Below, one piece after another: positions 20,876-29,227 of a DNA stretch of 34,347 bases. This stretch comes from Deltaproteobacteria bacterium. GTDB taxonomy: Bacteria; Myxococcota_A; Polyangia; Polyangiales; JADJMO01. Below the pieces are notes generated by a model that searched no databases, was not told the origin of the DNA, and saw nothing but the letters and a program-made list of their open reading frames with translations. The stretch is taken from contig JANYDK010000031.1 of NCBI GenBank assembly GCA_025363655.1, positions 1-34,347 of the forward strand, read 5' to 3'. The position numbers and the translations under genes are program-made. Every line of letters starts with the position of its first letter. Position 1 is the stretch's first letter.

Positions 20876-22369
20876 TCAGTAGCGAATGTGCGAGAGGTTC
20901 GTCGCGAGAATGGCGACGGGCGGTTGGCCGCCGACTTGGAAGGTGCGTCCGTCTTCGGGGCCACCTGGGTGAGCGACGGCGGCGATGCCGGCTTGGGCGA
21001 TGCGTTGGAAGTCGTCGGCGAGGACGATGGGTCCATCGCTCGCGAGGACCGCAGCGGCGCTCGCTTCCCCGGCTTCCCAGATCGCCTTCTCGATGGCGTG
21101 TCGACGAGAGACGGCGGCGTCGCCGACACCGACGGTGAAGGTCACGCCGCGTTCTTCACGCGCGAGCACGACCGCGTCGGAGCGCGTGAACTTGGCGATG
21201 GTCCAGGCGAAGGCGAGCAAGCGCTTCTGCTCGTGCGTCGGAACGTGACCTCCGGCGTCTCCCGCGGCGACTTCGTCTTTGCTCCGCGCGTCGCGCTGCT
21301 CGAGGATCGCAGCCCCCGGGACGATCGTGATCGAGAGATCGGCCAGGTCGGAGGCGAGGGTGCCGCCGGTGGCGAGGAGGGCGATGCCCTCGCGTTCGGC
21401 GAGTCGATCGATGGCGTCGGGATCGAACGAGGGGGCGACGAAGACCTGCATCGGCACGTTTTCCAGGCGCGCGAGCAGTTGCGCCGACGCCGGGACGTTG
21501 ATGGCGACGACTGGCTCGGAGAGCCCGGGTGCGAGCTGTCGGAGCACGGTGGCGAGCGCGAGCTCGATGTCCTGCGCCGAGGCGACGGCGACCGGACGCT
21601 GCCGCGCGATCACCACCGCCGTCGGATGCGGCATCTCGGCGAGGAGCTCGGTGGCGAGGCATACGTCGCGCGCACGGCTCGCCGTCACCTTCCCCGAGGG
21701 GCTGAAATTCATCGTCGTCGGCAAGGTGCCGTCGACCGGATGAGCGCTGCGAAAGAGCCACGCCTCTTGTTGCTTGTTCGACCCTGATCGCAGCTTGCTC
21801 AATCGGTGATAGTCGCCGAGGACGATCTCGGGGAGGTCTTGGCGAATGCCTTCGTCGTCGTACATGCTGAGCTCGCGCATCAGCGGGCCCTCGTAGAGCG
21901 CCAACGTCGAGAGCGCGTGGCGCGCCTGTTTGCGACAGAAGGGCTCGTCGAAATCGCCTTTGTATTGGTACTCGCTGACCACCGTCGGGTAGTCGGCCGG
22001 GTCCATGATCACGCAGGTGTCGCGGTAGCGGAGAATGGCGGCCATCGCCACCGTCGGCCCGACGCGATCGATGCCGTCGAGGATCAAGTCGAAGCCGAGG
22101 TCGGCAGGTGCGCGACGAAAGGGCGGCGGCAGATTGACGACGACGATTTGCACTGCCTGTCCGGCGATGGTGCGAAGCGCGGGGTCGGTCCTGTCGTGAT
22201 GGGCGAAGAGCGTGGCCGTCTCGGTCACCGGCACGTTGCGCGCGCGGAGGAACGCGGCGGTGTGCGACGGCGCGAGGATCTCGACCTTGACCTGCTCGAC
22301 GAGGAAGCGCGCGAGCTCGTCGATACCGCGGGTGTCGACGACGGAAATGAAGGCATGCGTGAGCTGCAT
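20876..22369 (-). CDS. PurH (AICAR transformylase/IMP cyclohydrolase) homologue with lost catalytic motifs
   Basis: The 497-residue protein follows PurH from end to end. It has an MGS-like N-terminus (AFISVVDTRGIDELARFL), VVVNLPPPF, ILDGIDRVGPTVAMAA, LRSGSNKQQEAWLF where PurH has LRYGENPHQ, a central transformylase region, and a C-terminal FAWTIAKFTRSDAVVLARE. The motifs that make PurH work are changed. The IMP cyclohydrolase segment normally reading GRVKTLHPKxHGG is absent (residues about 54-70 are LFAHHDRTDPALRTIAGQA). The transformylase Lys-His in IVKHANPCG is replaced in VIARQRPVAVA (253-263). NPHQ has become NKQQ. It is intact, with no frameshift, so it is probably a paralogue with a new role rather than the housekeeping enzyme. 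Confidence 0.8.
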   Translation of the reverse strand: MQLTHAFISVVDTRGIDELARFLVEQVKVEILAPSHTAAFLRARNVPVTETATLFAHHDRTDPALRTIAGQAVQIVVVNLPPPFRRAPADLGFDLILDGIDRVGPTVAMAAILRYRDTCVIMDPADYPTVVSEYQYKGDFDEPFCRKQARHALSTLALYEGPLMRELSMYDDEGIRQDLPEIVLGDYHRLSKLRSGSNKQQEAWLFRSAHPVDGTLPTTMNFSPSGKVTASRARDVCLATELLAEMPHPTAVVIARQRPVAVASAQDIELALATVLRQLAPGLSEPVVAINVPASAQLLARLENVPMQVFVAPSFDPDAIDRLAEREGIALLATGGTLASDLADLSITIVPGAAILEQRDARSKDEVAAGDAGGHVPTHEQKRLLAFAWTIAKFTRSDAVVLAREERGVTFTVGVGDAAVSRRHAIEKAIWEAGEASAAAVLASDGPIVLADDFQRIAQAGIAAVAHPGGPEDGRTFQVGGQPPVAILATNLSHIRY

Positions 22370-22498: not shown

Positions 22499-23164
22499 AT
22501 GTCGAGTGTCCACACCGCCGCGAAGGGCGACTGCGTCTACAGCATCGCCGACCTCTACAAGATTCGCGATTGGAAGAAGATCTACGACGCGCCCGACAAC
22601 GCCGACATGAAGAAGGCGCGGCCCGATCCGAACGTCCTCATGGAGGGCGACGAAGTGGCGATCCCCGACGTCGAGCCGGCGACGCGGAAGGTCACCGCGT
22701 CGACCGAAGAGAAGCACAAATACCAGGTCAAATTGCCGAAGTGCCTGCTTCGCGTGGCGGTGCACGACGAGGAAGACAAGCCCATCTCGGGGAAGAAATT
22801 CCTCCTCCTCGTCGGCGACAAACGCTTCGAGGGCACGACCGATGGCGACGGCATCGTCGAGCAGCGCATTCCCTTTCAAGCATCCACTGCCAAGCTCTAC
22901 GTCTTCTTCACCGACAAGAAGGACGACGGCGAGCACCTCTATTGGGATGTCGACATCGGCGGCCTCGAGCCGTCCGACACGCCACGAGGAATTCAGGAGC
23001 GGCTGAACAACCTCGGCTTCGTCTGCGGCGAGGTCGACGGCAAGTGGCACGACGGCATGGACGTCTCCCTCCGCACCTTCCAGAAATCAGCCAAAATCGA
23101 CCCCAACGGCGAACCCGACGACGCAACCACCAAGAAGCTCAAAGAAGTACACGGGAAGATCTGA
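22499..23164 (+). CDS. LysM-like / beta-sandwich / peptidoglycan-binding protein, T6SS-neighbour type
   Basis: The 221-residue protein has three parts. Residues 4-56 are LysM-like (HTAAKGDCVYSIADLYKI, ending DPNVLMEGDEVAIPD). Residues about 78-150 form a transthyretin/carboxypeptidase-regulatory-like beta domain (LRVAVHDEEDKPISGKKFLL, then TTDGDGIVEQRIP). Residues about 160-218 are a peptidoglycan-binding domain (GIQERLNNLGFVCGEVDGKW, then LRTFQKSAKID). From memory this architecture recurs beside VgrG, PAAR and effector genes in myxobacteria and Burkholderiales. No signal peptide is present, which fits a protein exported by a contractile injection system. Its role there is unproven: it could be a carrier or adaptor that loads or anchors effectors. 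It converges on the phospholipase gene, and its stop codon lies inside the hairpin at 23151-23173. Confidence 0.8.
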   Translation: MSSVHTAAKGDCVYSIADLYKIRDWKKIYDAPDNADMKKARPDPNVLMEGDEVAIPDVEPATRKVTASTEEKHKYQVKLPKCLLRVAVHDEEDKPISGKKFLLLVGDKRFEGTTDGDGIVEQRIPFQASTAKLYVFFTDKKDDGEHLYWDVDIGGLEPSDTPRGIQERLNNLGFVCGEVDGKWHDGMDVSLRTFQKSAKIDPNGEPDDATTKKLKEVHGKI

Positions 23165-23173
23165 TCTTCCCGT
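23151..23173. terminator. Bidirectional terminator-like hairpin between convergent genes
   Basis: The arms ACGGGAAGATC (23151-23161) and GATCTTCCCGT (23163-23173) are perfect 11-base inverted repeats. In RNA they would form a stem of about 9 bp with a 5-base loop from either strand. The TGA of the LysM-like gene lies in the loop region, and the phospholipase stop codon is 38 bases further on. No T-run follows, so termination would rest on the hairpin alone or be factor-assisted. Confidence 0.55.
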
Positions 23174-23210
23174 CACTCCGCTCCTCCGTGGCTCCGTGGT
23201 TCTCTCGAGC

Positions 23211-25766
23211 TCACTCTGCGAGATCCATCCATCCAGCCGCGGGGTGACCCCAGGCCTTGTCGGACCACCAGCGCCACCAATCGGTCTCTTCTTCCGCGTC
23301 GAAGAGGAATTCATTCGACCACTCGGGAACACCCGGCAGCGGATCGAGCCGCAACAGCGGCGTGTCGTCGCCGATGAGGTGGCTCTCCCACGTCAGCTTG
23401 AGCGGCAACGTCAGGCACTTGCCCGCGGTGAGCGTCTGTCCGAGGGCGTACATCTTGTAGTTCGCGCCCGCCGCGGCGAGTGCGCTCGGGCCGAACGATT
23501 TCGCATCACCGGTCGAGCCGAAGTGCTCGGTGAAGAGGTGGTCGCGGAAACCCTTGAGCTGCTTTTTGCAGTCCTCGGCGACGTCGGCCGAGCCGGGCCA
23601 CATGTGCACGCAAATTTCGGTGTCGCGATCGCCGGCCAGGCTGCGCTCGTTGAGGTTGGCGCTGCCGAGGATGACGTAGGTGTCGTCGACCATCATCAGC
23701 TTGGAGTGCACGTAAACCATGTAGCGATTGTTCGCTTTGACCAACTCCTTGCGGGTGATCTTCGCCGTCTTCGGGTTGGGCGCGGTGACGTATTGCTGGT
23801 TCGGATCGGCGTAGGTGCGTGAGCCGTCCTTGTTGACGAACCAATAGCCCTTGGGGCTCATCAGCTGTCCGCGCTTGGGCGCGCCGTTCTTCGCCGGGAA
23901 ATAGAAAGAGACGTATTTCTTCCAGTCGCCACCGCACTCCTTGGAGATGCGGCCGGCCATGAACTGCATCGTCTCCCACTCGAAGTGACGCTGCATCTGC
24001 GGCACGCCGGTGCCGGCCAAGGGCGGGCCTTCGGGGTACATCGGGCAGATGACGTAGACGTGGAACGGCTTGCCCTTCGAGTGGCGATCTTTGATGCGAT
24101 CGCAGAGCGCGCTCGCGACCGCGTTCTTCACGCCCCAGCGGGTAGTCGCCCAGTCGTTGCCGGAGCTGATGAAATATTGAGTCTCTATGTAGACGTACTC
24201 TTCGGCCAGCGAAATGGCGTTGAGATACGCGTCTTGGATGCTGCGCTCGAAGGGCTTGGCGAGCGTCCACTTGAAGTCGTGCTCGTACTTCTTGCCCAGT
24301 CGATCGGTCGCCCAATAGGTGCCGGTCATCGAGCGGAGGAGCTGGCAGGCCCAGCGGTTCTTCGAGCTCGCGCCCTTCGCCGATTTCGGGACTTGGTTCT
24401 GTTGGACGAACTTCTTGTCGTCGTGCAATGCGTCGTAGAGGTTGTTGACGAGCTTCGTCTTCTCGGTGGGCGGACCGCTGTAACGGTCTTGATCCATCGT
24501 GAAACGGGTCGCTTGATCGCCGCTGCCCATCTGCGTGAAGTCGTTCCAGCGACCGACCCACTCGCGGATGATGTCCCACGCCGTCGGGCCGGTGACGCAG
24601 CCGTAGATGTCGTGCCACGGCTGGCGCGGCATGGTGCGATCGGACTCGGAGTCGGACTGGAACTCGGCGCTGTACCAATCGTCGTAGGTGAGTTGGCTGT
24701 CGGAGAAGGTGCCGGGCACCGGGACGACTTGTTGACGTTTGAAGTCGTCGAAGGGAGGGCCCTTCCCGTCCGGATCGATGACGTGCGCGCTCCCGTCCCA
24801 ACGGCCTTTGGTGAGGTCGAGCCCGCCGAAGAACGCTTTGATGACGCGGCGATCTTCGCCCGGCACCTTGGCGTCGAGGACGACGAACTTCTGGTGGTGC
24901 GAATACGTCGTCGTTCGTTGGGCGGCGCGCCAGAGGAGGGTGTCGGGCAGTTTGGCGTTGCCGTTGAGGGCGCGGAAGCGAGCCTGCGCCTCGTTGTTGT
25001 GCTCGTCGGCAGCGCCGATCGGCGGGTGCTTCCAGGCGATGATGCCGACGAGCACCCCGCGCTTGGCCGCGTCGAGGAGGAGGCGCCCGATCGGGAGGTT
25101 CGCACCCGGCTGGCGAACCACACGGAAATAAGGCTGAAACGACCAGTCGGTGATGAAGACGAAGTGCTGCGCGTCGTTGATCGCCGCGACCATGTCGGTG
25201 AACGCCGCGCCGTGATCGTCGGTCGCTGGTTCGTCGGCGCCGTGGGCGTAGAGCTTGACCTCGTTGTGCGAGTGCCAGTCGTACGTCGCCTGGTTCTCGA
25301 CCTCGAGCGCGAAGGGCGCGACGCCCATCGTCACCGGGTTGGAGACGCTCTCCTCAGGCTCGGTCATCTTCGCCTGAATCACCCACTTGCGCTGGAGCGC
25401 GCCCGGCGGCGCCTTGATCTTGAAGAACTTGAAGACCGGGTTGTTCCCCTTCGCCATCACCACGGCGACGATGCGCGTCTCGGGATCTTTCGGGGCGTCC
25501 TTGTCCGGTTGCGGGACGTCCTTCTCGACGCCGTCGGTGTCGAGCGCGAGCGTGTAGCCGAGGCGACCGGCGGAGACGACGAGCCCCTTGAGCTTGCCGA
25601 CGACGGTGTCGGTGTCGGGAGAGTCGTCGTGCTTGAAGACCTTCTCGTGCAGCTCGAGCGAGACATGCGTGAGGTTCTTCATGCCGGAGACGGTGAGAAG
25701 GATCGTCGCGTCGGTCCCCTTCAAGGGGGGATTCAGCGGCTCGAGGATGACTCGTTTGTTCGCCAT
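23211..25766 (-). CDS. Phospholipase D family protein with two HKD motifs, probable secreted effector
   Basis: The 851-residue protein has two HxKxxxxD catalytic motifs: YSHHQKFVVLDAK (His291, Lys293, Asp298) and VYVHSKLMMVDD (His687, Lys689, Asp694). The second is followed by GSANLNERSLAGDRDTE, typical of true phospholipases. The first 150 residues are beta-rich (TILLTVSGMKNLTHVSLELH) and may be a C2-like lipid-binding domain. PLD enzymes cleave the head group from phosphatidyl lipids. Bacterial members injected by type VI secretion (Tle5 class, such as PldA/PldB) kill neighbours by destroying membranes. There is no signal peptide, consistent with export by such a machine. It lies 19 bases downstream of the VasX-like gene. 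The start is the ATG at 25766. Confidence 0.9.
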   Translation of the reverse strand: MANKRVILEPLNPPLKGTDATILLTVSGMKNLTHVSLELHEKVFKHDDSPDTDTVVGKLKGLVVSAGRLGYTLALDTDGVEKDVPQPDKDAPKDPETRIVAVVMAKGNNPVFKFFKIKAPPGALQRKWVIQAKMTEPEESVSNPVTMGVAPFALEVENQATYDWHSHNEVKLYAHGADEPATDDHGAAFTDMVAAINDAQHFVFITDWSFQPYFRVVRQPGANLPIGRLLLDAAKRGVLVGIIAWKHPPIGAADEHNNEAQARFRALNGNAKLPDTLLWRAAQRTTTYSHHQKFVVLDAKVPGEDRRVIKAFFGGLDLTKGRWDGSAHVIDPDGKGPPFDDFKRQQVVPVPGTFSDSQLTYDDWYSAEFQSDSESDRTMPRQPWHDIYGCVTGPTAWDIIREWVGRWNDFTQMGSGDQATRFTMDQDRYSGPPTEKTKLVNNLYDALHDDKKFVQQNQVPKSAKGASSKNRWACQLLRSMTGTYWATDRLGKKYEHDFKWTLAKPFERSIQDAYLNAISLAEEYVYIETQYFISSGNDWATTRWGVKNAVASALCDRIKDRHSKGKPFHVYVICPMYPEGPPLAGTGVPQMQRHFEWETMQFMAGRISKECGGDWKKYVSFYFPAKNGAPKRGQLMSPKGYWFVNKDGSRTYADPNQQYVTAPNPKTAKITRKELVKANNRYMVYVHSKLMMVDDTYVILGSANLNERSLAGDRDTEICVHMWPGSADVAEDCKKQLKGFRDHLFTEHFGSTGDAKSFGPSALAAAGANYKMYALGQTLTAGKCLTLPLKLTWESHLIGDDTPLLRLDPLPGVPEWSNEFLFDAEEETDWWRWWSDKAWGHPAAGWMDLAE

Positions 25767-25785
25767 TTCGTGCTCTCGCCTCCGC

Positions 25786-28344
25786 CTACCAGCTCATCAC
25801 GAACGACTTGTGAATTTCACGCTCGAGGACGTATTTGCCGTCGCCGAAGAGATCGACCTTGGCCGTGCCCCGAACGTGGAGGACGCCCTCGGCGCGTTGG
25901 TGCGCGTCGGCGTCTTTCATCTTGGTGAACGCCTTGACGACGAGCGGCTCGTTCATCGTCGCCTCTTCGTCGCTCTGCAGTTCGTCGGGCTTGAAGCTCC
26001 ACTGATCGGGTGGCTTGCCGTCGTTGTGATCGATGGTGAGATCGATCTTCCAGCGCGAGTGGGCGTTGAGCGGGTTGCTCTTCTCCGGCGTGCCGGTGCG
26101 CAAGATCAGCGACTTGGCGATGATCACCGAGTGCTCGTTCTCGAGCTCGAGCTTGGGGTCGTAGTCGTAGATGAGCTCGTTGAGCACGCGGTGCTGCGCC
26201 TTGATGTCGCCGGCGAGCGTCGGGAGCTTGCCCTTGAAGCCGTAGAAGTCGCCGTCGTCGAGCTTGTCGAGCCCGCGATGGAGCATGTTGCCGGGATCGC
26301 CCCACTTGCAGTGACGGAGAAATACGCTTGCCGGCGTGAGGTTGGTGACCGCGAAGGAGCCGCCGGCTTCGAGGAGGATTCCAGTGAGGAAGACGGGAAT
26401 GCCCCAGCCGACCTCGGAGGTGAGCGCGCCCGTTGCCTCGAGGACCTCGGCCCCGGAGACGACGACGGTGAGCGCGGCGCCGAAGGTGCGGATGCCGTGA
26501 CCGACTTTTTCGCCGGTGGTCTTCGCCTCGAGCATCTCTTTGCCGAAGAGGATGAAGTCGATGACCGAAGAGACGATGGAGATGAAGGGCGCGATCTTCA
26601 CGACCTTGGTCGCGCCTGCGTATTTGAAGGAGACCTTCGCCTCTTCCAGCGTCTTGCTCACCTTCGAGGCGGCGTCGTAGAAGTCGCCGATCGAGCCGAC
26701 GAGGCCGAGCGCGTTCCAACCGTCGGGCTCTTCGGCGAGCTTCATCGCCGACATCGCAAGGTTGTACGTCTCGATGCCGAGCATCAGGTGGTTGAGGCCG
26801 ACCTTGGTCGCCTTGCCCGCTTTCGTCTTCGGCGAGTCGATCCAGAGCGAGCCCGGGTTTTTCCGGCCCTTCTTCATCGCGCGCCACTCGCGCTTGAACT
26901 CGGCGGGGCTGAGCGTCTCGATGTCGACGTCGTGCGTGGCCTTGAGCCACGACTTCATGTTCTTGGTCGCGTCGGAACGAAACTTCTTCGTCCACATCGG
27001 CGCCCAGTGCTTGAAGAACTTGTGCCAGGTCTTGTCGGAGTCGGCGGCGGTCGCCAGCTTGCGACCGGCCTCGAAGGCCATCTCGGCGCCGGCGGTGGAG
27101 ACGGGGAATTTCTTCGCCACCAGGTCGTCGAGAACGGACTCCATCCAGACGACGCCGGCATGCGACTCGGCCATGCGCGATTGCACCGCGTAGGCGACGT
27201 CGTTGGCCGGGCCGATGGTGTCGGCGTTGCCGAGGTAATCGCGAATCGCCTCGGTAAATGGGTTGAACCAAGCGGTCGGCGCGGCTTGGGCCTTCGCCAT
27301 CGCGTACTGCTTGCCGCTGCCGTCGCGGTAGATGATGCCGCCCTCGTGCTGGTGCCCGTACGACACCCAGCGCATGAGGTTCTCGCTGTAGTTCTCGACC
27401 GCGAGACGAAGCTTGAAGACGTCGGCCTCGGCGTCGCGCAGATAGTTCGGCAGCTTGGCAGCGACGATCTCGTCGAGCTTGAACGCCCGCGCATACGCCT
27501 CGACCCGCTTGCCGAGGACGTACTCGTCGTCCTTCGACATCTGCACTTGCTTGTCGAGCCACTTGTCGAGCCACTTGTGGTACGGCTCGACGCGCAAAAG
27601 CGCTTCTTTCATCGGGTCGTAGAGGTGCAAGACGAAGCCGAGGCCGTCGGGCTTCGACCCCTTGAAAAGATCGTAAAAGCACTTCGCCTTCGACGCGTCG
27701 CCGTCGGTAAAGCCGTCGGTGAAGAGCGCGTCGCCGATGCGCTGCGCACGCGCCGCGGTCTTCGTGTCCTTCGGCAGCTCTTGCAGGCGGGCCCAAGGAA
27801 TCTGGAAGGGCGCGAGGATCGCGAAGTAGTAGCGCACCGCAGGCTTGCCGTTCGTCACGCGGACGATGTCGAGCCAGAGGCTCTTGTACTTCTTCTTCCC
27901 CGGCTTGCGGACGTCCTTGCCCGAGTTGCCCTCGAGGTCGACGATCGAGAGCTCGCCCTTCTCGTAGTAGAGCTCGTGATCGAGCATGAGGCCGGCGCCT
28001 TCGGCCGAGTCGGCGGAGAAGACGTAGACGTACTTGGCGTCGATCGGCCCCGAGCGTTTGCGCGAGAAGGAGCGGTAAAACGGGCCGTATCCGTATTCGC
28101 GGAGCATGCCGTACATGCCCGGCACGTCGGAGGTGGCGTCGTCGATTTTCTCGCCCGCTTCGTCGATGAACTGCGGGTAGCGATGCCAACCGGTGAGCTG
28201 CCCGTCCATCGAGACGTCGAGCGCGACTTTGGGACTGTTCGGCGAGCCGACCAGGCGTCGCATGGGGAGGTCGTAGATCGCGTCGATCTCCTTGAAGACG
28301 ACTTCGAACTGCGTGACCGCCGACTCGTTGCCTTGCAGGGCCAT
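25786..28344 (-). CDS. VasX/BTH_I2691-like putative pore-forming effector
   Basis: The 852-residue protein has no signal peptide. The N-terminal half contains YVYVFSADSAEGAGL near residue 105 and LGFVLHLYDPMKEALLRVEP (235-254), like the DP-containing block near the middle of VasX-type toxins. A helical region follows. Three hydrophobic segments are at about 581-601 (VVKIAPFISIVSSVIDFILF), 616-640 (HGIRTFGAALTVVVSGAEVL) and 645-670 (VGWGIPVFLTGILLEAGGSF). After them comes TPASVFLRHCKWGDPG, similar to the closing WLxxCxFG region of the family. VasX-like proteins form pores in the target inner membrane. A tandem repeat at 27550-27573 gives HKWLDKWLDKQ. The assignment is by pattern, not by search. 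The ATG is preceded by GAGGTAAGG. Confidence 0.55.
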   Translation of the reverse strand: MALQGNESAVTQFEVVFKEIDAIYDLPMRRLVGSPNSPKVALDVSMDGQLTGWHRYPQFIDEAGEKIDDATSDVPGMYGMLREYGYGPFYRSFSRKRSGPIDAKYVYVFSADSAEGAGLMLDHELYYEKGELSIVDLEGNSGKDVRKPGKKKYKSLWLDIVRVTNGKPAVRYYFAILAPFQIPWARLQELPKDTKTAARAQRIGDALFTDGFTDGDASKAKCFYDLFKGSKPDGLGFVLHLYDPMKEALLRVEPYHKWLDKWLDKQVQMSKDDEYVLGKRVEAYARAFKLDEIVAAKLPNYLRDAEADVFKLRLAVENYSENLMRWVSYGHQHEGGIIYRDGSGKQYAMAKAQAAPTAWFNPFTEAIRDYLGNADTIGPANDVAYAVQSRMAESHAGVVWMESVLDDLVAKKFPVSTAGAEMAFEAGRKLATAADSDKTWHKFFKHWAPMWTKKFRSDATKNMKSWLKATHDVDIETLSPAEFKREWRAMKKGRKNPGSLWIDSPKTKAGKATKVGLNHLMLGIETYNLAMSAMKLAEEPDGWNALGLVGSIGDFYDAASKVSKTLEEAKVSFKYAGATKVVKIAPFISIVSSVIDFILFGKEMLEAKTTGEKVGHGIRTFGAALTVVVSGAEVLEATGALTSEVGWGIPVFLTGILLEAGGSFAVTNLTPASVFLRHCKWGDPGNMLHRGLDKLDDGDFYGFKGKLPTLAGDIKAQHRVLNELIYDYDPKLELENEHSVIIAKSLILRTGTPEKSNPLNAHSRWKIDLTIDHNDGKPPDQWSFKPDELQSDEEATMNEPLVVKAFTKMKDADAHQRAEGVLHVRGTAKVDLFGDGKYVLEREIHKSFVMSW

Positions 28345-28357
28345 GCCTTACCTCGAT

Positions 28358-28393
28358 GATGCCGGAGATGCCGGTGATGCCGGTGATGCGGAG
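28358..28393. repeat. 9-bp tandem repeat between effector genes
   Basis: Units GATGCCGGN at 28358-28366, 28367-28375 and 28376-28384 are followed by a degenerate fourth at 28385-28393. They lie in the 55-bp gap between the unknown protein gene and the VasX-like gene, ending 14 bases before the ATG. The ribosome-binding site of the VasX-like gene (GAGGTAAGG) lies between the repeat and its start. A change in copy number would move the spacing by multiples of 9 without touching a reading frame. Confidence 0.75.
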
Positions 28394-28399
28394 TGAACG

Positions 28400-29227
28400 T
28401 CAGGTCCAGCTGACGTCGCCCGGAGCGGCGACCTCGAACTCGTGCAGGGCGTGCCCTTCGAGGAGCTTTCCCGCGTCGTGCTCCTGCGTGATGATCGCCT
28501 CGTAGGGAGCGTCGTCGAAGATCACGCGACGGAAATCTTCGTCGTGCACCTGGGTCAGTCGATAGTCGACGTCGGGCACCAGGTTGCGGAAGACGATCTG
28601 TTTCCAGCCTTTTTTCTCGCTGATCGCGTCCTTGGCGGTGATCGTGCGCGAGTAGCTGCCGTCCTTCGACTCGAGGATGAACTTGGGGAAGCCGTCGTCG
28701 AGACCGTCGGCGTCTTTGAGCGCGAAGGAGACGGTCATGATGCCCTTCTTTTCGTCGTCCTCGATGTTCGACTCGCCGTCGCCGACGCCTTCGTAGTCGT
28801 AGACCTCGCGGATCTCGTGATCGAACTCGGGCGCTTCGTCGAAGTCGAAGTACGGGCGGCCGACCGGCGTCGGCACGACGTGTGGCTTCATCGGATCGCT
28901 GCTGGTGCGCGCGATGGTCGGGTCTTGGTTCTCGATTTCGCAGACGTAGAGGCCAGCGTCGACCATGTGATCGACGCGGGCGACGCCGTTGCGATCGGTC
29001 TTCAGCGGATCACCCACCGCCGCGCCCTTCCCGCCGTCGGCGGCGGCCTCGAAGAACTTCACCTCGACGTCGTAGATGGGATGCCGATGGAAGGTGACCT
29101 TGACCGCGAGGTGCCCCAACTGACGGGCGACGAGCATGCCCGAGAGCTTTTTTTCGTGGGGATCGAGCACCCGCGCGAGCGCTGCGCGCGGGAACGGCGA
29201 TTCTCTGTCTTCTTTCGAGAGCGGCAT
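28400..29227 (-). CDS. Unknown beta-rich protein, first gene of the effector operon
   Basis: The 275-residue protein has no signal peptide. A beta-sandwich-like segment (about 37-102) contains VKVTFHRHPIYDVEVKFFEA and TDRNGVARVDHMVDAGLYVC, the same transthyretin/carboxypeptidase-regulatory pattern found in the LysM-like protein. A second beta-rich half follows (about 165-270: MTVSFALKDADGLDDGFPKF, FRNLVPDVDYRLTQVHDEDF). No catalytic motif or membrane segment is seen. The start is an ATG preceded by GGAGGGAC. It leads the minus-strand set with the VasX-like and phospholipase genes, so it may be an effector adaptor, a chaperone, or an effector in its own right. No family could be named. Confidence 0.7.
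   Translation of the reverse strand: MPLSKEDRESPFPRAALARVLDPHEKKLSGMLVARQLGHLAVKVTFHRHPIYDVEVKFFEAAADGGKGAAVGDPLKTDRNGVARVDHMVDAGLYVCEIENQDPTIARTSSDPMKPHVVPTPVGRPYFDFDEAPEFDHEIREVYDYEGVGDGESNIEDDEKKGIMTVSFALKDADGLDDGFPKFILESKDGSYSRTITAKDAISEKKGWKQIVFRNLVPDVDYRLTQVHDEDFRRVIFDDAPYEAIITQEHDAGKLLEGHALHEFEVAAPGDVSWT

What the first reader, a model, noticed from the sequence alone, without database searches (positions are those of the whole stretch)
22499..29227. Candidate contact-dependent effector island: LysM/PGBD protein, phospholipase D, VasX-like pore former, unknown beta protein
Seen: a minus-strand set of an unknown beta-rich protein, an 852-residue protein with three late hydrophobic segments and a DP block, and a two-HKD PLD with 19- and 55-base gaps. 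A LysM-like/beta/PGBD protein converges on them. None has a signal peptide. Known: VasX/BTH_I2691 proteins and Tle5 phospholipases are type VI effectors, and the LysM/PGBD architecture sits near VgrG/PAAR genes. Inference: two membrane-attacking activities, one pore and one lipase, are packed with a peptidoglycan-binding protein that may act as carrier or adaptor. No VgrG, PAAR, DUF4123 adaptor or immunity gene is recognisable, which is unusual for such islands.
Basis: partly seen in the sequence, partly recalled or inferred. Interest (0 to 1): 0.8.

Follow-up and report, generated by a model that had tools for sequence, protein, structure and literature searches.

The report
Composite two-weapon type VI effector island
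In a large bacterial genome, probably of a myxobacterium, a lipid-cutting enzyme and a distant relative of known pore-forming toxins sit together with a probable loading protein for the bacterial type VI "spear gun", and their small helper genes have fused into one, which suggests that two separate weapons were merged into a single package.

Summary
The four genes are real and lie at the stated coordinates. The window is a whole 34.3-kb contig of an unnamed 9-Mb genome with a type VI secretion (T6SS) cluster and 16 VgrG ORFs, none on this contig. The LysM/PGBD protein belongs to a family that in this genome is fused to the end of four VgrGs and neighbours two more. Its middle domain matches the TTR-like tail of VgrGs, the part reported to recognise PLD effectors. 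The 852-residue protein is a distant, below-cut-off relative of BTH_I2691/VasX pore formers; two relatives lie near LysM, VgrG and PAAR. The "unknown beta protein" is a fusion: its first half is the stand-alone gene just before PLD in two other cassettes, its second half the gene (or gene end) just before the pore-former relative in three others. The island is two effector cassettes joined, most likely T6SS cargo loaded in trans. A PurH-like protein lacking motifs kept in ordinary PurH accompanies the three complete PLD cassettes and may be the missing partner or immunity gene. Delivery and toxicity are inferred; two genomes with PLD relatives show no T6SS sheath hit. New variant of a known kind.

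The parts
22499..23164 (+). LysM-TTR-PGBD protein (221 aa), probable loader or adaptor; VgrG-tail-like domain about residues 84-125 (22748-22873), PGBD residues 165-214 (22991-23140)
   Evidence: PF01471 8e-8; VgrG-tail HMM E 1.3e-4 in the first round, 7e-10 after one iteration; relatives fused to four own VgrGs; family found in 53 of 183 genomes of the order
23211..25766 (-). two-HKD phospholipase D (851 aa); HKD motifs at 24873-24896 and 23685-23708
   Evidence: PF00614 and PF13091; PDB chains 6kz8 (PLD alpha 1) 1e-52 and 7v53 4e-25; 40-41% identical relatives at G000:C31 and G107:C141
25786..28344 (-). 852-aa BTH_I2691/VasX-like candidate pore former; profile match at residues 487-685 (26290-26886), hydrophobic segments within residues 580-667 (26344-26607)
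   Evidence: NF041559 E 1.3e-5, below cut-off; relatives G000:C96 and G051:C242 at 32-34%; hydropathy
28400..29227 (-). fused companion protein (275 aa): domain B1 about 28808-29152 (PLD-type companion), domain B2 about 28424-28738 (pore-former-type companion)
   Evidence: AlphaFold2 gives two beta domains with block pLDDT 63-88 in their cores, whole-model mean 60.5
20876..22369 (-). PurH-like protein (497 aa) without motifs kept in ordinary PurH; candidate partner or immunity gene of the PLD
   Evidence: a PurH-like gene lies beside PLD in 3 of 3 complete PLD cassettes; motif comparison; extra to another PurH in both host genomes

Best explanation
This is an orphan (VgrG-less) T6SS cargo island formed by joining two effector cassettes. 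Cassette 1 is LysM-TTR-PGBD, B1, PLD and a PurH-like gene; cassette 2 is B2 and a BTH_I2691-like pore former. B1 and B2 have fused into one 275-aa protein. Proposed working: PLD and pore former associate with the B1-B2 companion in the cytoplasm, and LysM-TTR-PGBD, a stand-alone version of a VgrG tail, docks them on one of the cell's 16 VgrGs. Contraction delivers them into the envelope of a neighbour, where PLD hydrolyses phospholipids and the pore former depolarises the membrane. Shown: genes, homologies, fusion, recurrence of the cassettes, T6SS genes in the genome. Inferred: loading, delivery, toxicity, protection.
For: T6SS core genes on C132: Hcp, TssA, B, C, E, F, K, L, M and a ClpB-type ATPase; 16 VgrG ORFs. 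LysM family fused to 4 of 16 VgrGs (C123, C136, C50, C48) and next to or one gene from 2 more (C96, C51). A VgrG-tail HMM hits the window LysM protein, both PLD-cassette relatives and the 191- and 177-aa genes before B2-pore former at C96 and G051:C242. LysM family and sheath gene over 183 genomes: 50 both, 3 LysM only, 42 sheath only, 88 neither; Fisher p 1.2e-15, not corrected for relatedness. G169:C64 has VgrG, LysM, pore-former relative, membrane protein and PAAR in one row; G158:C13 has relative and LysM, with PAAR and VgrG (opposite strand) within about 7 kb. B1 lies upstream of PLD in 3 of 3 complete cassettes (directly in 2; here the pore-former gene lies between); B2 stands directly before the pore-former relative in 4 of 8. 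Papers, passages only: a LysM protein was needed for VgrG-toxin binding (PMC10673891); [quoted passage not shown]
Against: No VgrG, PAAR or known adaptor seen in the window. G107 and G142, which carry PLD relatives, have no VipB hit at 96% and 94% completeness. Only 1 of 15 fetched LysM loci of other genomes has a VgrG nearby. The BTH_I2691 match is far below cut-off, and 0 of 8 family members have the strict MIX motif. PLD matches PLD alpha 1 and mammalian-type PLD chains better than 7v53. B1, B2 and LysM profiles are not detectably related to each other. The 852-aa fold prediction failed (pLDDT 37).
Confidence: 0.7

Rival explanations
1. Own-envelope or housekeeping role: LysM-PGBD anchors at peptidoglycan, PLD remodels the producer's own lipids, and the 852-aa protein is a membrane or stress protein.
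For: No VgrG, PAAR or classical immunity gene seen nearby; two genomes with PLD relatives lack a sheath hit; PLD resembles PLD alpha 1 most.
Against: No signal peptide or N-terminal membrane segment by hydropathy in any of the four, so no evident Sec route to the periplasm. LysM family is fused to VgrG. Very patchy distribution: PLD (E up to 1e-20) in 3 of 183 and close pore-former relatives in 2 of 183 genomes, this one included. Two pore-former relatives lie near VgrG and PAAR.
Confidence: 0.13
2. The same proteins are cargo of another contact-dependent machine (an eCIS or a myxobacterial predation apparatus), with LysM as a baseplate-type part.
For: LysM proteins are core eCIS components (PMC10673891, passages); G107 and G142 have no VipB hit.
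Against: The family here is fused to proteins with Phage_GPD and gp5-type VgrG domains in a genome with a T6SS cluster; the cited paper reports T6SS LysM domains as distinct from eCIS ones.
Confidence: 0.1
3. The 275-aa B1-B2 protein is an immunity protein, not a loader.
For: No classical immunity gene is recognisable next to the effectors; B1 and B2 are each paired with their own effector type.
Against: No signal peptide or membrane segment by hydropathy, whereas both activities would act from the periplasm; the genes lie before the effectors, the usual adaptor place (recalled). Membrane proteins follow the pore-former relatives in G169 and G146. B2 by iterated profile also stands before unrelated large proteins.
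Confidence: 0.15

Closest known systems
BTH_I2691/VasX pore-forming T6SS effectors (Tke5, Ptx2)
   Same: Weak but repeated profile match over the helical, hydrophobic C-terminal region; beta / helical / beta order in the low-confidence model, as described for Tke5 (PMC12909789 passages)
   Different: Below family cut-off; no strict MIX motif; no DUF4123 adaptor in the window; LysM-TTR-PGBD and B2 companions instead
Tle5 phospholipases PldA and PldB
   Same: Two HKD motifs, full-length PLD; match to PDB 7v53 (that this chain is PldA is recalled); a VgrG-tail-like domain as presumed docking site (PMC6684961 passages)
   Different: The docking domain is on a separate LysM-PGBD protein, not on an adjacent VgrG; no Tli5-like gene recognised; closer to PLD alpha 1
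LysM and PG_binding_1 proteins of vgrG loci (Wang et al. 2023)
   Same: Occurs stand-alone and fused to the VgrG C-terminus, as that study describes (PMC10673891 passages and section 7)
   Different: LysM, TTR-like and PGBD parts in one small protein, at an orphan locus, beside lipid- and membrane-attacking effectors; [quoted passage not shown]
M. xanthus VgrG2-TsxE-TsxI
   Same: Myxobacterial T6SS effector unit with a LysM domain (PMC5801462 passages)
   Different: There LysM is part of an amidohydrolase-type effector next to vgrG2

Membership tests
BTH_I2691/VasX | NCBIfam NF041559 above curated cut-off (150 bits) | tested here: not met
   23.9 bits, E 1.3e-5; best of 8 members 41.8 bits, one of 8 without a match at E 0.1
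BTH_I2691/VasX | N-terminal MIX motif hRxGhhYhh | tested here: not met
   Strict motif in 0 of 8; loose look-alike (window IDAKYVYVF) in 6 of 8; motif definition seen in PMC12909789
BTH_I2691/VasX | beta N-domain, helical region with late membrane helices, beta C-domain | tested here: inconclusive
   Secondary structure fits but mean pLDDT is 37; hydrophobic segments present
BTH_I2691/VasX | Match to the solved Tke5 chain | tested here: inconclusive
   Profiles A1 and A2 do not reach it by sequence; no usable model for a fold search
BTH_I2691/VasX | T6SS-dependent pore formation | not testable with these tools
   -
Tle5 PLD effectors | Two HKD motifs in a full-length PLD | tested here: met
   Residues 291 and 687; PF00614, PF13091
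Tle5 PLD effectors | Sequence similarity to Tle5a PldA | tested here: met
   7v53 (identity as PldA recalled) E 3.8e-25, but weaker than PLD alpha 1 at 1.3e-52
Tle5 PLD effectors | Adjacent vgrG with TTR tail | tested here: not met
   No VgrG match on the contig; the TTR-like domain is on the neighbouring LysM protein
Tle5 PLD effectors | Cognate Tli5 immunity gene | tested here: inconclusive
   No such gene recognised; PurH-like gene in the place
T6SS vgrG-locus LysM/PG_binding_1 loaders | Both stand-alone and VgrG-fused forms | tested here: met
   4 fusions and 2 near neighbours among 16 own VgrGs; of two fusions scanned, Pfam PGBD is above cut-off in one and below it in the other
T6SS vgrG-locus LysM/PG_binding_1 loaders | This gene lies at a vgrG locus | tested here: not met
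   No VgrG match on C103
T6SS vgrG-locus LysM/PG_binding_1 loaders | Needed for VgrG-effector binding | not testable with these tools
   -
eCIS LysM baseplate proteins | eCIS sheath and baseplate genes in the genome | not tested
   Only VipB and Phage_GPD profiles were searched

The most novel reading that the evidence does not exclude
A paired-payload device: the fused B1-B2 protein is a two-headed chaperone that loads a phospholipase and a pore former together, through a detached VgrG-tail protein (LysM-TTR-PGBD), onto one spike, so that one shot carries two membrane-attacking toxins; and a PurH-derived protein that lost its conserved motifs serves as immunity or cytoplasmic inhibitor of the PLD.
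Probability: 0.22. Interest if true: 0.75.

Novelty: new variant of a known kind. Interest (0 to 1): 0.56.

Why it matters
The fusion of two effector companions is a natural pointer to which small gene serves which toxin, and makes loading of T6SS cargo without a linked VgrG directly testable. It would extend VasX-like and PLD effectors to a probable myxobacterial order where the VasX-like proteins examined have no strict MIX motif, and offers a small adaptor that works, if right, like a VgrG tail in trans.

Tried and rejected
AlphaFold2 of the 852-aa protein with a three-row alignment gave pLDDT 37 and no fold was searched with it. Profiles A1 and A2 against the PDB by sequence found no relevant chain. 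Sequence profiles of LysM, B1 and B2 were not detectably related to each other, so I do not call B1 and B2 TTR domains. Foldseek and VIA-align on the 275-aa model gave only common Ig/FnIII-like beta domains (best Z 8.2, rmsd 3.8 over 83 residues; the other 49 listed rows 7.1 or less), no informative family. A phylum draw of 377 genomes with profile A2 added one weak new place (G482), whose fetched neighbourhood showed no VgrG, LysM or family hit among my called genes. Genome contigs gave one relative, apparently the same contig as G051:C242. I considered that the gene after PLD in the other cassettes was a second effector; Pfam makes it PurH-like. Literature on PurH as immunity protein: one search, 3 papers listed, none opened.

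Selection notes: four of the eight pore-former relatives (G177, G169, G146, G158) were found by the NF041559 search itself, so their match to it is circular; the window, C96 and G051:C4 copies were reached by other routes, and the G051:C242 copy does not match it at E 0.1. G158's profile match runs past its open frame and counts 4 TGA. The VgrG-tail HMM was built from only four VgrG tails and searched against 699 called proteins; it also hits other small or large genes at LysM loci, and its second round is iterative and less independent. The four non-window B2 copies of the 877/885-aa operons were joined to B2 by iterated profile only; direct BLAST of one showed nothing. My simple ORF caller can miss or mis-start genes (it missed B1 at C31, mis-called G142 and took the wrong strand for LysM in L086 and L087). 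At G177 the upstream side of the relative is cut by the contig end; one of the 15 LysM loci is a contig of 8.3 kb. PurH control: G107's second PurH keeps two of my four motif patterns, not all four, so my first comparison with three ordinary PurHs was too clean.

Full report
What is there. The window is a complete 34,347-base contig (C103) of an unnamed 9.0-Mb genome in 150 contigs, 96% complete. That it is a myxobacterium is inferred: a genome of the same family is titled "Deltaproteobacteria bacterium", and the order holds genomes of up to 16 Mb. The four genes of the finding are real: strong third-position GC, correct coordinates, gaps of 19 and 55 bases between the three minus-strand genes, and the LysM/PGBD gene converging on them 46 bases away. 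Around them are ordinary genes with Pfam matches (carboxylesterase, PdxJ, alpha-amylase-type, HlyD- and AcrB-type, biotin carboxylase and carboxyltransferase, prephenate dehydrogenase/chorismate mutase). No VgrG match lies on the contig, and Pfam scans of 27 window ORFs, some of them overlapping alternatives, show no PAAR or DUF4123.

The genome has a T6SS. Contig C132 holds Hcp, TssA, TssB, TssC, TssE, TssF, TssK, TssL, TssM and a ClpB-type ATPase. There are 21 Phage_GPD matches, which my HMM resolves into 16 VgrG ORFs.

The LysM/PGBD protein is a VgrG-linked module. Its family occurs 11 times in this genome and in 53 of 183 genomes of the order. In this genome relatives form the C-terminus of four VgrGs (C123, C136, C50, C48; in the first three the match starts at query residue 43, 84 or 92, so the LysM end is missing or partial), stand 8 bases from a fifth (C96) and one gene from a sixth (C51). 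Pfam scans of two of these fusions show VgrG domains in both and PGBD above cut-off in one, below it in the other. A profile made from the tails of four VgrGs finds the middle domain of the window protein (E 1.3e-4 in the first round, 699 proteins searched), of its two PLD-cassette relatives (2e-5, 2e-4), and of small genes that stand before pore-former cassettes (191 aa at C96, 3e-8; 177 aa at G051:C242, 2e-4; 219 aa at G051:C4, 6e-10); it also finds several other genes at LysM loci. Presence of the LysM family and of the T6SS sheath gene go together over 183 genomes: 50 both, 3 LysM only, 42 sheath only, 88 neither (Fisher p 1.2e-15, not corrected for relatedness). Against this, only 1 of 15 fetched LysM loci of other genomes has a VgrG within about 10 kb, three more on short contigs show none, and two of the three LysM-only genomes are G107 and G142, which also carry PLD relatives.

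The PLD. Two HKD motifs, full length; best PDB matches are PLD alpha 1 (1.3e-52), PLD1 and PLD2 chains, then 7v53 (3.8e-25; Tle5a PldA of Pseudomonas aeruginosa, as I recall). Relatives at E up to 1e-20 occur in 3 of 183 genomes. Three complete cassettes are known: here, at G000:C31 and at G107:C141. In the latter two the order is LysM (opposite strand), B1, PLD, PurH-like. In G142 a PLD relative follows an OmpA-PGBD protein by 15 bases and precedes a protein with a just-below-cut-off RDD match and many hydrophobic segments by 7.

The 852-residue protein. Close relatives: C96 in the same genome and G051:C242, 32-34% identical. The only family match of note is NF041559 (T6SS effector BTH_I2691 family), E 1.3e-5 and well below cut-off, over residues 487-685. 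A search with that family found below-cut-off places in 6 of 183 genomes; the G051:C4 one also matches the profile of the three close proteins (2e-13). Of the eight members examined, strict MIX motif 0, loose look-alike 6. Neighbourhoods: G169:C64 has VgrG, LysM, the relative, a protein with four hydrophobic segments and PAAR in a row; G158:C13 has the relative and LysM, with PAAR and VgrG on the other strand within about 7 kb; G051:C4 has LysM then the relative; G146 has a B2-bearing gene, the relative, then a protein with a long hydrophobic segment. LysM adjoins the relative in 3 of the 5 places outside this window. The structure prediction failed, so pore formation rests on distant homology.

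The 275-residue protein is a fusion. Residues 2-150 match, at 47-48%, the stand-alone gene just before PLD at C31 and G107; residues 164-268 match, at 31-36%, the stand-alone gene (at G146 the end of a longer gene) just before the pore-former relative at C96, G051:C242 and G146. By iterated profile B2 also stands between LysM and an 877- to 885-aa protein in G147, G148, G150 and G152. AlphaFold2 gives two beta domains (core blocks pLDDT 63-88) joined by a low-confidence linker; fold comparison shows only common Ig-like sandwiches. The island is thus two cassettes joined, with their companions fused.

The PurH-like gene. In the three complete PLD cassettes a PurH-like gene is next: overlapping PLD by 11 bases at C31 (called starts), 21 bases after it at G107, and beyond the LysM gene here. 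I compared four motif patterns in nine proteins. RYGENPHQ and KHTNPCG are kept in 6 of 6 PurHs that are not beside a PLD and lost in 3 of 3 that are; TGGTA and DGRVKTLHP are kept in 4 of 6 each and lost in 3 of 3 (their catalytic meaning is recalled). G000 has a further PurH with all four patterns (C143) and G107 one with two of the four (C486). None of the 55 other relatives searched shows a second full-length match; G005 has a second fragment of about 100 residues. The gene sits where immunity genes usually sit (recalled), but I see no route for it to the periplasm; its role is a guess.

How it probably works. [quoted passage not shown] Putting such a tail on a free LysM-PGBD protein would let an orphan cassette use a VgrG in trans. 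B1 and B2, without signal or membrane segments and placed before their effectors, look like loading chaperones. Delivery would put PLD and the pore former in the target envelope. No step beyond gene content is shown.

Verdict. The interpretation as a contact-dependent effector island is largely right in kind but unproven; the membership of the 852-residue protein in BTH_I2691 fails the two tests that could be run to an answer. New here: the composite origin, the fused companion, the VgrG-tail homology of the LysM protein, and the PurH-like partner.

Noticed in passing
window 20876-22369 (-); G000:C31 (L080 15305-16903); G107:C141 (L081 15662-17212): PurH-like proteins lacking motifs kept in ordinary PurH accompany the three complete PLD cassettes, in addition to another PurH elsewhere in the same genomes.
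   Followed up: partly
L086-L089 (G150, G152, G148, G147): LysM gene, B2-domain gene (by iterated profile) and an 877- to 885-aa protein in a row (no Pfam or NCBIfam match for the one scanned): possible further effector family with the same companions.
   Followed up: partly
G107:C12 (L127 4518-7777): VgrG-tail-like 192-aa gene, LysM gene, a 495-aa gene resembling the OmpA-PGBD protein of G142 by eye, and another gene matching the LysM-family profile in a row, in a genome without a VipB hit.
   Followed up: partly
L107 9604-10704 and L108 10318-10908: Proteins with hydrophobic segments directly after the pore-former relatives in G169 and G146: immunity candidates with no counterpart seen in the window.
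   Followed up: no
G000:C132 (L038 9556-11424): A second sheath-like protein carrying both VipA and VipB domains in one 623-aa chain beside the T6SS genes.
   Followed up: no
L035 3658-6786 and L036 7061-9493: Large proteins (1042 and 810 aa) without Pfam or NCBIfam matches next to LysM and VgrG: possible unknown effectors.
   Followed up: no
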